A stretch of 64,000 nt of DNA, taken from positions 62,001 to 126,000 of the forward strand of contig DATNPK010000026.1 of NCBI GenBank assembly GCA_036703275.1, written 5' to 3'. Origin of the DNA: Coleofasciculaceae cyanobacterium (GTDB lineage Bacteria; Cyanobacteriota; Cyanobacteriia; Cyanobacteriales; Xenococcaceae). Made by a program: the position numbers and the translations under genes. Under the pieces are notes generated by a model. It was not told the DNA's origin, made no database searches, and was given only the letters and a program-made list of their open reading frames with translations. Each line of letters opens with the position of its first letter. Within the stretch, counting starts at the first letter, position 1. Of this stretch, positions 4,615-30,342 are shown piece after piece.

Positions 4615-5346
4615 TCAATCTATTTTTGTTGCTAAAGACCGAGCTTTTAGAAGTTCATCAAATGTATTAACTTCTAATAGGGCTTGTTTAATCGGACAAA
4701 CCTGAATCGCAAATCCGTGTTCGATCGCTCTTAGTTGCTCTAACCCTTCGGCTAATTCGATTGGTGTCGGTTCTAAACTGGCATATATGCTCAAAAAATC
4801 CTGGCGGAAAGCATAAAGTCCTAAATGATGGAAGACGGGAACGTCAACCGTGTTACGAAAGTAAGGAATTGAAGCACGAGAAAAATAAATGGCGCGATTA
4901 TAGCGATCGCATAATACTTTAACCGTATTGGGGTCTTGATAACCCGCGTTCATCTCCAACGGACAGGCAACGGTAGTCATCTCAGGTGATTCTCCTTTAA
5001 GATAAGGACTGACTAGCTGAGAAAGTATTTCTGGAGTAACAAAGGGTTGATCTCCCTGAACGTTGGCAATTGCGGTCATTTCAGGATAGCGCTCGGCTAC
5101 TTCTGCTACGCGATCCGTACCTGTAATGTGGTTGGCTCTAGTCATTTCAACCTCGCCGCCAAATTGTCGCACGCAGTCGGCTACGATTTGATTGTCAGTT
5201 GCCACAACCACTTGCTCAAAATCAGCACAATTTTTGGCGGCTTCGTAAACCCACTGAATCATAGGGCGATCGCCAATTTGGGACATTACTTTGCCTGGAA
5301 GACGTTGTGAGCCATATCTAGCGGGAATAACAGCTAAGATTTTCAT
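4615..5346 (-). CDS. kdsB: 3-deoxy-manno-octulosonate cytidylyltransferase (CMP-Kdo synthetase)
   Basis: KdsB activates Kdo with CTP to give CMP-Kdo in the cytoplasm. The 243-residue protein has the N-terminal nucleotide-binding motif IPARYGSQRLPGK (7-19), ATDN (49-52), GTDR (76-79), QGDQPF (97-102) and the C-terminal LEQLRAIEHG helix, all typical of KdsB. The start is the ATG at 5346, where MKILAVIPAR begins; it overlaps the kdsD stop by four bases (ATGA), showing translational coupling. A longer in-frame start at 5397 would lie inside kdsD. Length and motifs are those of an active enzyme. A CMP-ulosonate relative of slightly different specificity cannot be excluded. Confidence 0.93.
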   Translation of the reverse strand: MKILAVIPARYGSQRLPGKVMSQIGDRPMIQWVYEAAKNCADFEQVVVATDNQIVADCVRQFGGEVEMTRANHITGTDRVAEVAERYPEMTAIANVQGDQPFVTPEILSQLVSPYLKGESPEMTTVACPLEMNAGYQDPNTVKVLCDRYNRAIYFSRASIPYFRNTVDVPVFHHLGLYAFRQDFLSIYASLEPTPIELAEGLEQLRAIEHGFAIQVCPIKQALLEVNTFDELLKARSLATKID

Positions 5347-6338
5347 TGCAGACCACTCCCGACAATATCGTGAAGCCGAATTAAACCCAGACAGCAACCT
5401 TGATGATTCACCACTGGTAATACATCAATTTGAGAAGTTCGCTCTTCCATCAGCTTGAGGGCATCATAAGCCAGAACGTCTGGCGTGACAACTGTCGGAT
5501 TATTGGTCATAATTTTTTCAGCTTCTAAAGTTTCTAGCTCAGTTGGTTTAATTTTGCCAATCCAGCGACGCAAATCTCCGTCGGTAATTAAGCCCAGCAG
5601 ATTTCCAGCTCGATCGACAATATTTACCGCTCCTAAACCACCACAGCTAATCGCACTTGCCACTTCAATCCAAGCGGCTTCGGCAAAGAGAGTCGGATTG
5701 CGATCGCCACAATGCATTAAATCGCCTACCTTGATTGTTAAACGTTTACCTAAGCGTCCTGCGGGATGGTTAATCGCAAAGGATTCTGCCGTAATACCGC
5801 GCATCTGCATCAAAGTCATGGCTAAAGCATCTCCAATCGCTAAAGCAACCGTCGTGCTGGTAGTAGGTGCTAAATTCAAAGGACAGGCTTCTCGATCAAC
5901 AGTAGCGTCCAGAAAAACGTCCGCTCTTTGGGCTAAAGTAGAGCTAATGTTACCGACAATGGCAATAATTGGTACTCGCCGATGTTTGAGGGCGGGAATT
6001 AAAGTGACTAATTCTTCGGTTTCTCCACTATTGCTGAGAACTACTGCCACGTCAGCAGTAGTGACAATTCCTATGTCTCCATGCAAGGCATCGCACGGAT
6101 GCAGAGAGACGGCTAAAGTACCAATACTGTTTAAGGTAGCAGCTATTTTCTGGGCGACAATTCCCGATTTACCAACCCCCGCCAAAATTACTTTGCCCTG
6201 ACAATCTGACAGTAAAGTCAGTGCTTGTTCTACTTGATCTAGCTGCATTTGTTGCGCTGCTCGATCGATAGCGCGAGCTTCTAGTTTAAGAATATCGGCA
6301 AATTTATTGACTCGAATAAAGCCTTTGGATAGATACAT
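5343..6338 (-). CDS. kdsD: D-arabinose 5-phosphate isomerase (KdsD/KpsF)
   Basis: The enzyme converts ribulose 5-phosphate to arabinose 5-phosphate, the first committed step towards Kdo. A SIS domain covers about residues 35-185, with GVGKSGIVAQKIAATLNS and LSNSGET sugar-phosphate motifs, and the active-site His in LHPCDALHGD. A CBS pair follows (about 205-265 and 275-330), with ITDGDLRR in the first. Length and domain order match KdsD. The chosen ATG at 6338 follows AGGAG by 5 bases; a GTG immediately before it is also possible. It is coupled to kdsB. Confidence 0.93.
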   Translation of the reverse strand: MYLSKGFIRVNKFADILKLEARAIDRAAQQMQLDQVEQALTLLSDCQGKVILAGVGKSGIVAQKIAATLNSIGTLAVSLHPCDALHGDIGIVTTADVAVVLSNSGETEELVTLIPALKHRRVPIIAIVGNISSTLAQRADVFLDATVDREACPLNLAPTTSTTVALAIGDALAMTLMQMRGITAESFAINHPAGRLGKRLTIKVGDLMHCGDRNPTLFAEAAWIEVASAISCGGLGAVNIVDRAGNLLGLITDGDLRRWIGKIKPTELETLEAEKIMTNNPTVVTPDVLAYDALKLMEERTSQIDVLPVVNHQGCCLGLIRLHDIVGSGLQ

Positions 6339-6401
6339 CACGCTCCTGATTAATTATCTAAAAATTATCTCGCTCGCTTTGATCTCGGAATGGGTTCAAC
6401 A

Positions 6402-28893: not shown

Positions 28894-28909
28894 ATATAAT
28901 TTGTAACTT

Positions 28910-29755
28910 ATGCATCAGACTCAAATCACAAGTAGGCTTTCGATTGGCGATCGCCAACCTTTAACTTTAATTGGTGGCCCTTGCGTCATAGAATCAGAAG
29001 ATTTCACGTTAAAAATGGCCGAGGAAATTTACCAGATATGCGATCGCCTAAACATATCTTTCATTTTTAAATCTTCTTTTGACAAAGCTAATCGGACTTC
29101 AATTAATTCCTTTCGCGGTCACCCCTTGGACAGAGGGCTAAACATCTTACAAAAAATCAAAGATCGGCTGGGCATACCCGTTCTTACCGATATTCACGAA
29201 AGCAATCAGGCTGCTACTGTAGCCCAAGTAGCAGATGTTCTGCAAATTCCTGCCTTCCTTTGTCGTCAGACTGATTTGCTCTTGGCTGCTGCTGCTACGG
29301 GAAAAGCGATTAATGTCAAGAAAGGTCAGTTTCTCGCCCCTTGGGACATGAAAAATGTGGTCAAAAAACTAGAACACGGTGGGGCTAAAAATATTCTTTT
29401 GACTGAGCGGGGTACTTCTTTTGGCTACAACAATCTCGTGGTAGATTTTCGTTCTTTACCGCAGATGCGAGAACTAGGTTATCCAGTAGTTTTTGATGCG
29501 ACCCACAGCGTTCAGATGCCAGGAGGCAAAGGAGACCAAACAGGCGGACAGCGAGAGTTTGTCCCCTACTTAGCCAAAGCAGCAGCAGCAGTAGGTATTG
29601 ATGCCTTGTTTATGGAAGTCCACGAGACTCCAGATGTTGCTCCTAGTGATGGTCCTAATATGATACCTTTAGCCAATTTAGAAAAAATTCTTAGACAGGT
29701 AGCCAGTATCCATAATAATAGTTTAGAACTAACTATCCCTGTAGGCGTGTCATGA
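28910..29755 (+). CDS. kdsA: 3-deoxy-8-phosphooctulonate synthase (Kdo-8-P synthase)
   Basis: KdsA condenses arabinose 5-phosphate with PEP to form Kdo 8-phosphate. The 281-residue TIM barrel shows GGPCVIES (22-29), [42 protein letters not shown] and the C-terminal [16 protein letters not shown], all family hallmarks. Cys25 is at the position of Cys11 of the Aquifex enzyme, where E. coli has Asn, so the metal-dependent class is predicted. The stop overlaps the kdsC ATG by four bases (ATGA). Its partners kdsB and kdsD are in the leftward arm. Confidence 0.95.
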
Positions 29756-30342
29756 GTAGAAATTTAAACGCTTTACAGACTCGTTTGTCTGAGGTTAAGC
29801 TACTGGCACTAGATGTAGACGGTGTCTTGACTGATGGTGGTCTTTACTACAGTAATACCGGAGAAGAGCTAAAAAAATTTAATGTCAAAGATGGACAGGG
29901 AATCAAGTTGGTCATGCAGGCGGGAATTGAAGTAGCCATTATTAGTGCCAATAATTCTGCTGCAACCCTTTATCGAGCAAAAAAGCTAGGTATTCAGCGT
30001 GCTTTTGTTGGCATTGACAACAAGTTAGCTACTCTCCAACAAATTTGTGCCGAACTAAATTTATCTCTGGCTCAAGTCGCTTATGTTGGTGACGATCTTA
30101 ACGATTTACCAATTTTACAGTCTGTTGGTTGTCCCTTAACGGTAGCTGATGCCATACCAGAAAATCAAGCTCATGCCGTATATGTAACTGAGTTAAAAGG
30201 AGGGCAAGGATGCGTTCGCGAAATCTGCAATCTTTTATGGCAAGTACACCAACGCAAGTTACAATCTTCATTGTCTAACGGCAGAGTCTCGTCAAGCGGG
30301 AACGAGATAATTTCTCACCATAAAAGCAAAATTTTTGATTGA
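29752..30342 (+). CDS. kdsC: Kdo 8-phosphate phosphatase (HAD IIIA family)
   Basis: KdsC removes the phosphate from Kdo 8-phosphate. The HAD nucleophile motif is [10 protein letters not shown] (20-29), followed by [11 protein letters not shown], the substrate-loop motif typical of KdsC, then AIISANNS (motif II) and [12 protein letters not shown] (motifs III/IV). There is no cap domain, as expected. The C-terminal tail extends about 25 residues beyond the core and is Ser-rich. It is translationally coupled to kdsA. Confidence 0.93.

What the first reader, a model, noticed from the sequence alone, without database searches (positions are those of the whole stretch)
4615..30342. All four enzymes of CMP-Kdo synthesis are present, split between two divergent arms of one polysaccharide locus
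KdsD and KdsB form a coupled pair (4.6-6.3 kb, leftward) and KdsA and KdsC another (28.9-30.3 kb, rightward). Kdo is classically reported missing from many cyanobacterial lipopolysaccharides, so a full pathway inside an exopolysaccharide cluster with sulfotransferases is striking. It implies a Kdo (or related ulosonic acid) residue in a cell-surface polymer.
Basis: partly seen in the sequence, partly recalled or inferred. Interest (0 to 1): 0.75.

Follow-up and report, generated by a model that had tools for sequence, protein, structure and literature searches.

The report
Kdo for a sulfated cyanobacterial polymer
A cyanobacterium related to Myxosarcina carries all four genes for making the sugar Kdo, which in other bacteria anchors lipopolysaccharide, but not the usual enzyme that attaches Kdo to lipopolysaccharide; a polysialyltransferase-like enzyme encoded next to two of these genes probably puts Kdo into a sulfated surface polymer instead.

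Summary
Confirmed: kdsD-kdsB (leftward) and kdsA-kdsC (rightward) are intact genes about 24 kb apart in one polysaccharide locus. The genome (5.62 Mb, rated 100% complete) has one KdsA and one KdsB over cut-off, no WaaA (PF04413) and no KpsC/KpsS (PF05159), so Kdo on lipid A by the classical route is very unlikely.

KdsB is the genome's only PF02348 cytidylyltransferase over cut-off, so CMP-Kdo is its likeliest donor. In 291 Cyanobacteriia genomes PF07388 occurs in 12 of 38 with KdsA and 5 of 253 without.

Not rare: 38 of 291 sampled Cyanobacteriia have KdsA, mostly in a compact kds cluster; the 24-kb split was seen only in this genus. Homologues sit beside kds in two genomes that look like Synechococcus elongatus; its synonym Anacystis nidulans was reported to have Kdo in LPS. 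Enzyme activity and polymer composition are inferred, not shown.

The parts
4615..5346 (-). kdsB, CMP-Kdo synthetase (ATG at 5346; mechanical ORF starts TTG 5397)
   Evidence: TIGR00466 over cut-off; only PF02348 hit over cut-off in the genome; start, length 243 aa
5343..6341 (-). kdsD, arabinose-5-phosphate isomerase (SIS + CBS)
   Evidence: TIGR00393 over cut-off, KdsD/GutQ equivalogs not reached; SIS and CBS; 2xhz 143 bits
28910..29755 (+). kdsA, Kdo-8-phosphate synthase
   Evidence: TIGR01362 407 bits; only hit over cut-off in the genome; 1fwn 338 bits
29752..30342 (+). kdsC, Kdo-8-phosphate phosphatase (HAD)
   Evidence: TIGR01670 over cut-off, equivalog PRK09484 not reached; 3mn1 144 bits
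30346..31566 (+). GTx, PF07388-type GT-B glycosyltransferase; proposed CMP-Kdo transferase
   Evidence: PF07388 50.1 bits, cut-off 23.3; single copy; model pLDDT 88.3; best listed TM-score to GT38 polysialyltransferase; motifs; neighbourhoods
6402..7256 (-). GT8 glycosyltransferase upstream of kdsD; recurrent partner of kds/GTx
   Evidence: PF01501 43 bits; same loose cluster (c5) in 24 of 40 fetched kds loci; best-matching homologues with GTx
17194..18807 (-). initiating sugar-phosphate transferase (Bac_transf)
   Evidence: PF02397 222.6 bits
14962..17139 (-). Wzc-type polysaccharide co-polymerase
   Evidence: PF02706, PF13807 over cut-off
13111..14922 (-). ABC exporter half-transporter, possible flippase
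   Evidence: PF00005 114 bits; PF00664 26.6, just under cut-off 28; flippase role inferred
33562..34833 (+). Wzy-type polymerase / O-antigen ligase family
   Evidence: PF04932 45 bits, cut-off 31.7
25809..26717 (+). sulfotransferase
   Evidence: PF13469 70.8 bits
28021..28893 (+). sulfotransferase directly upstream of kdsA
   Evidence: PF00685 30.8 bits, cut-off 22
37107..38060 (+). sulfotransferase
   Evidence: PF13469 37.3 bits
10318..11172 (-). MptE/DUF115-like protein; rival candidate CMP-sugar transferase
   Evidence: PF01973 31 bits, under cut-off 34.6; family cluster in 2 of 40 fetched kds loci; no solved relative

Best explanation
The locus makes CMP-Kdo and spends it on a cell-surface polysaccharide, not on lipid A. 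KdsD makes arabinose-5-phosphate, KdsA condenses it with phosphoenolpyruvate, KdsC dephosphorylates and KdsB activates Kdo as CMP-Kdo (steps known for these families; gene identity shown here). GTx (30346-31566), a polysialyltransferase-fold enzyme, then transfers Kdo from CMP-Kdo to a lipid-linked oligosaccharide, with Asp140 as likely base and His287 of the KPHP motif stabilising the CMP leaving group (by analogy with the GT38 enzyme; inferred). The GT8 enzyme (6402-7256) probably makes the acceptor or extends it (inferred). The unit, started by the PF02397 transferase, is flipped (perhaps by the ABC exporter), polymerised by Wzy, exported with Wzc, and sulfated by the cluster's sulfotransferases (inferred from gene content).
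For: Own genome: no PF04413 match, no PF05159 match, one KdsA and one KdsB over cut-off, one GTx. GTx is 3 nt from kdsC, PF07388 over cut-off, confidently modelled; highest TM-score among the 50 listed matches is the GT38 polysialyltransferase 5wc6/5wcn (0.55/0.54). KxHP, shared by sialyltransferases and beta-Kdo transferases (PMC12887879; PMC5517516), is at 285-288; D140, H287, S347, Q18 are conserved in 15 of 15 and P288 in 14 of 15 aligned homologues. PF07388 is in 12 of 38 KdsA+ and 5 of 253 KdsA- sampled Cyanobacteriia genomes (Fisher 2e-8, genomes not independent); in the 12, nearest hit 1.5-29 kb from kdsA in 10, on another contig in 2. GTx follows kdsC directly in 5 loci incl. the window. 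In 4 of 5 KdsA- genomes with PF07388, and in both Nostoc loci, another cytidylyltransferase-like gene lies nearby. KdsB being the only PF02348 protein over cut-off here leaves CMP-Kdo as the evident CMP-sugar.
Against: No activity or sugar analysis. Most KdsA+ genomes (26 of 38) have no PF07388 hit, so another enzyme must use CMP-Kdo there (PF05159-related c9 in 13 of 40 fetched loci; strong KpsC-like hits in 7). At genus level the association is weak: 4 of 19 KdsA+ against 4 of 111 KdsA- genera (Fisher p 0.016), and 8 of the 12 genomes are one genus. The motif at the proposed base is G-D-S/G, not the D/E-D/E-G of GT38. By E-value the top fold matches are UDP-GlcNAc 2-epimerases, the epimerase fold being shared GT-B. 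Profile search of the PDB with the family found nothing. Distant homologues L149 and L151 have no cytidylyltransferase hit in the DNA held. Newer Kdo-transferase families (GT140 KrkA, KdoT) were not searched in this genome.
Confidence: 0.7

Rival explanations
1. The polymer holds Kdo, but another gene of the locus is the Kdo transferase: the MptE/DUF115-like protein (10318-11172; Maf-type relatives resemble sialyltransferases, recalled) or one of the family-less proteins (9214-10230, 36269-37045); GTx makes another linkage.
For: PF01973 31 bits, just under cut-off; the gene is conserved in the sister genome (88%) and in two other kds loci (L109, L118) and near GTx in G556 (64%).
Against: Its cluster is in only 2 of 40 fetched kds loci, while GTx-type proteins track cytidylyltransferases; GTx has the CMP-binding-type motif and fold.
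Confidence: 0.13
2. Kdo goes to the LPS core or lipid A through a non-WaaA transferase (for example a KdoT- or GT140-like enzyme, or GTx itself acting on LPS or O-antigen).
For: Kdo was reported in Anacystis nidulans LPS (PMC4515613, passages), and S. elongatus as a named control has KdsA and KdsB without PF04413. Non-WaaA Kdo transferases exist (PMC12856342, PMC12887879; passages).
Against: In print, cyanobacteria have only lpxA, C, D, B (PMC3087551, passages); here all four kds genes and GTx sit in a Wzy-type locus with sulfotransferases. Lpx genes of this genome were not searched here.
Confidence: 0.12
3. The enzymes make a Kdo relative (another 3-deoxy-ulosonate) rather than Kdo.
For: KdsC and KdsD reach only subfamily, not equivalog, level.
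Against: KdsA and KdsB meet equivalog cut-offs, and a KdsD homologue supplying arabinose-5-phosphate is next to KdsB; no NeuA/PseF-type protein over cut-off elsewhere in the genome.
Confidence: 0.05

Closest known systems
GT38 bacterial polysialyltransferases (PF07388; MhPST, 5wc6/5wcn)
   Same: GT-B fold with best listed TM-score 0.55, PF07388 over cut-off, KxHP motif, serine pair after it, acidic residue in the N-domain loop
   Different: 11-12% identity; G-D-S/G instead of D/E-D/E-G; paired with KdsABCD rather than NeuA/NeuB; the genome has no NeuA-type PF02348 protein over cut-off
Retaining beta-Kdo transferases GT99 (WbbB), GT107 (KpsC), GT140 (KrkA)
   Same: CMP-Kdo as donor (proposed here), HP motif, GT-B
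   Different: No PF05159 match in the genome; none of these is among the 50 listed fold matches; GT140 not compared by sequence
WaaA (GT30, PF04413)
   Same: Would be the usual user of CMP-Kdo
   Different: No match in the genome; control genomes E. coli, Caulobacter, Bacteroides did match
Synechan xss cluster of Synechocystis (PMC8205485, passages seen)
   Same: Cyanobacterial sulfated EPS locus with sulfotransferases, Wzy and a co-polymerase
   Different: No kds genes mentioned there ('Kdo' 0 occurrences); synechan has Rha, Man, Gal, Glc and sulfate; no Wzx found among the window proteins scanned here
KpsU/KpsF/KpsC/KpsS survey of cyanobacteria (PMC4594306) and CMP-Kdo module in Chroococcidiopsis (PMC13308351), passages seen
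   Same: Already report CMP-Kdo pathway homologues in cyanobacteria; [quoted passage not shown]
   Different: Do not name a transferase like GTx in the passages seen

Membership tests
CMP-Kdo biosynthesis (KdsD, KdsA, KdsC, KdsB) | KdsA and KdsB at equivalog level | tested here: met
   TIGR01362 407 of 314; TIGR00466 182.5 of 155.2
CMP-Kdo biosynthesis (KdsD, KdsA, KdsC, KdsB) | KdsC and KdsD at equivalog level | tested here: inconclusive
   Subfamily models met, equivalogs not reached
CMP-Kdo biosynthesis (KdsD, KdsA, KdsC, KdsB) | Enzyme activities | not testable with these tools
   needs purified enzymes
GT38 / PF07388 polysialyltransferase | PF07388 score over gathering cut-off | tested here: met
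   50.1 of 23.3 bits
GT38 / PF07388 polysialyltransferase | GT-B fold like MhPST | tested here: met
   TM 0.55 to 5wc6, model pLDDT 88.3
GT38 / PF07388 polysialyltransferase | HP motif | tested here: met
   KPHP 285-288; H287 in 15 of 15 homologues
GT38 / PF07388 polysialyltransferase | D/E-D/E-G motif with catalytic Glu | tested here: not met
   G139-D140-S141 here, G-D-S or G-D-G in the 15 homologues
GT38 / PF07388 polysialyltransferase | CMP-sialic acid made by the organism | tested here: not met
   KdsB is the only PF02348 hit over cut-off; one other at 20.3 of 22.6 bits
WaaA-type Kdo-lipid A | WaaA present | tested here: not met
   0 matches to PF04413 in own genome
Group 2 capsule with poly-Kdo linker | KpsC/KpsS (PF05159) | tested here: not met
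   0 matches in own genome
Wzy-dependent sulfated EPS | Wzy, co-polymerase, initiating transferase, sulfotransferases in one locus | tested here: met
Wzy-dependent sulfated EPS | Wzx flippase | tested here: inconclusive
   none among the window proteins scanned with Pfam; ORFs beyond 48.7 kb not scanned; an ABC exporter is present

The most novel reading that the evidence does not exclude
GTx founds a new kind of Kdo transferase: a polysialyltransferase-fold, probably inverting enzyme that puts Kdo inside a Wzy-polymerised, sulfated cyanobacterial polysaccharide. A kds + GT8 + (GTx or PF05159-like c9) module, spread patchily over Cyanobacteria that have no WaaA, would also explain the old report of Kdo in Anacystis nidulans LPS.
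Probability: 0.4. Interest if true: 0.75.

Novelty: new variant of a known kind. Interest (0 to 1): 0.6.

Why it matters
Textbook and review statements say that cyanobacterial envelopes lack Kdo, yet old chemistry found it in Anacystis nidulans. The genomes here show a complete CMP-Kdo pathway in 38 of 291 sampled Cyanobacteriia by KdsA (37 with KdsB as well), 36 of them without WaaA over cut-off. Linking the pathway to a specific transferase candidate makes the question where the Kdo goes testable in a genetically easy strain (Synechococcus elongatus), and may add a fold class to Kdo transferases. Kdo plus sulfate would give a very acidic polymer, relevant to metal binding and desiccation of baeocyte-forming cyanobacteria (inference).

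Tried and rejected
Kdo for lipid A via WaaA: rejected, no PF04413 in the genome. Group 2 poly-Kdo capsule: rejected, no PF05159. A large-protein cluster (c7/c11) beside kds in the f25 family looked like KpsC/KpsS by length only (my note); the sequences read as a helicase-like and a nucleotidyltransferase-like housekeeping protein, so that idea was dropped. MptE/DUF115 as the main Kdo transferase: lowered, in 2 of 40 fetched loci.

My first genus-level test counted one genus (g67) as positive although its PF07388 genome lacks KdsA; I discard that p-value and use the recount (4 of 19 against 4 of 111 genera, p 0.016). In the tree the row L160 was a wrong ORF (the PF07388 gene there is 9002-10237), long branches meet, and the split between Kdo-linked and other rows has 94/91 support with a midpoint root only; I use the tree for nothing more than that. 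PDB profile search with the GTx family gave no hit. The pdb_via library was not available. MptE-like and 3618-4553 proteins had no useful PDB match.

KdsB hits in genomes without KdsA: six (G163, G165, G223, G424, G552, G565); four of them are under the TIGR00466 cut-off and may be other cytidylyltransferases. One KdsA genome (G264) has no KdsB hit.
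Full report
Observation. KdsA (28910-29755) and KdsB (4615-5397) meet curated equivalog cut-offs; KdsC (29752-30342) and KdsD (5343-6341) meet subfamily cut-offs but not equivalogs. All four align with solved enzymes of those names. kdsB's likely ATG (5346) overlaps kdsD's stop, and kdsA overlaps kdsC by 4 nt, so both pairs look translationally coupled.

Surroundings. The leftward arm also has a PF02397 initiating transferase, a Wzc-type co-polymerase, an ABC exporter, methyltransferases and a GT8 enzyme beside kdsD; the rightward arm has three sulfotransferases by Pfam in or beyond it (25809, 28021, 37107), a GH10 protein, an acetyltransferase-like hexapeptide protein, a PhyH protein, a Wzy-type protein and GT4 enzymes. 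The left arm is conserved at 82-93% in the sister genome G070, whose contig has the length of a named Myxosarcina MAG contig.

Genome. G000 is 5.62 Mb, 116 contigs, rated 100% complete. KdsA: one hit over cut-off, three of 122-127 bits far below it. PF02348: KdsB and one sub-cut-off hit. PF04413 (WaaA): none. PF05159 (KpsC/KpsS): none. So the CMP-Kdo made here has no classical user.

The missing piece. The gene 3 nt after kdsC, 30346-31566 ('GTx'), is a PF07388 protein (50.1 bits, cut-off 23.3), single in the genome. An AlphaFold2 model from 15 homologues has mean pLDDT 88.3, pTM 0.87. By Foldseek E-value the first hits are UDP-GlcNAc 2-epimerases (TM 0.45-0.48); by TM-score the best of the 50 listed is the GT38 polysialyltransferase of Mannheimia (5wc6, 5wcn; 0.55, 0.54). 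In that enzyme E153 is the base, H291 of the HP motif stabilises CMP, and S339/T340 bind phosphate (PMC5517516, passages). GTx has D140, H287 (KPHP) and S347-S348 in the same order; D140, H287, S347 and Q18 are kept in 15 of 15 homologues. The (K/R)XHP motif is stated to be common to sialyltransferases and retaining Kdo transferases (PMC12887879, passages). One difference: the base motif reads G-D-S/G, not D/E-D/E-G.

Linkage. In 291 sampled Cyanobacteriia, KdsA over cut-off is in 38 and KdsB over cut-off in 39 (43 at E 1e-30). PF07388 is in 17: 12 of the 38 KdsA+ and 5 of the 253 KdsA- (Fisher 1.7e-8). The genomes are related (8 of the 12 in one genus); by genus it is 4 of 19 against 4 of 111 (p 0.016). 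In the 12, the nearest PF07388 hit is 1.5-2 kb from kdsA in five, 13-29 kb in five, and on another contig in two. Three of the five KdsA- hits are strong (197-240 bits) and two marginal (27.1 and 23.3 bits); in four of the five a cytidylyltransferase-like gene lies in the fetched stretch (L157, L158, L160, L161; the last a weak 28% match), in L159 none in the 11.4 kb held. The family thus tracks CMP-ulosonate supply, and here that supply is CMP-Kdo.

Other kds genomes. Among 40 fetched loci plus the window, KxHP is universal in two recurrent glycosyltransferase-like clusters: c18 (GTx, 7 of 7) and c9 (13 of 13). One c9 member hits PF05159 and others PF02350; c9 and GTx profiles match around the HP motif (hhalign probability 93%). 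GT8-like c5 is in 24 of 40 loci and the window. Seven KdsA+ genomes of family f25 have strong KpsC-like PF05159 hits (186-199 bits). WaaA over cut-off is in 2 of the 38 KdsA+ genomes (G239, G274, taking handles below G386 as the sample); two more have marginal hits.

Is the split odd? In 35 genomes with kdsA and kdsB on one contig, 33 have them within 8 kb; only the window's genome and its sister have them 24 kb apart.

Synechococcus elongatus. As a named control it has KdsA and KdsB over cut-off and did not match PF04413, PF05159 or PF07388. G401's contig is 2,696,255 bases, which I recall as the chromosome length of S. elongatus PCC 6301; that identity is recalled, not tested. NCBI taxonomy lists Anacystis nidulans names under PCC 6301. 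A review reports Kdo (1.5%) in A. nidulans LPS (PMC4515613, passages), while others say that Kdo is absent from cyanobacteria (PMC4390846, PMC3087551, passages).

Literature. Seven answered searches listed no paper that assigns a PF07388-like protein to Kdo transfer; only listings and passages were seen and subscription papers are mostly not held, so this is no proof. CMP-Kdo genes in cyanobacteria are already in print (PMC13308351, PMC4594306; passages).

Verdict. The pathway is sporadic but ordinary in Cyanobacteria; the new element is the WaaA-free, KpsC-free setting with a polysialyltransferase-like candidate Kdo transferase.

Noticed in passing
window 3618-4553 (-): Protein directly downstream of kdsB with no Pfam hit; its start (HIGTHKTGSTSI) resembles a sulfotransferase PAPS-binding loop (recalled motif), so perhaps a fourth sulfotransferase.
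   Followed up: partly
window 26740-27876 (+): GH10 (xylanase-type) glycoside hydrolase inside the polysaccharide locus, conserved at 90% in the sister genome.
   Followed up: no
window 20269-21258 (+): DUF3102/UPF0137-type protein between the two arms, an odd neighbour for a polysaccharide locus.
   Followed up: no
L148 9989-14062, L150, L161: GTx-like domain as the N-terminus of about 1350-residue proteins, in Nostoc right after a PseF-like cytidylyltransferase and (L148) LegB/LegC-type genes: perhaps a legionaminic-acid polymer enzyme.
   Followed up: partly
L138, L139: No kdsC match between kdsA and GTx in Pleurocapsa sp. CCALA 161 and a Hyellaceae MAG; another phosphatase may serve.
   Followed up: no
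family f25 (G239, G274, G322, G364, G370): Strong WaaA (PF04413) hits in five genomes of one Cyanobacteriia family, against the printed statement that cyanobacteria stop at LpxB.
   Followed up: no
family f25 (G201, G205, G227, G239, G257, G272, G291): Strong KpsC-like PF05159 proteins in seven KdsA+ genomes of the same family: possible poly-Kdo-linked capsules.
   Followed up: no
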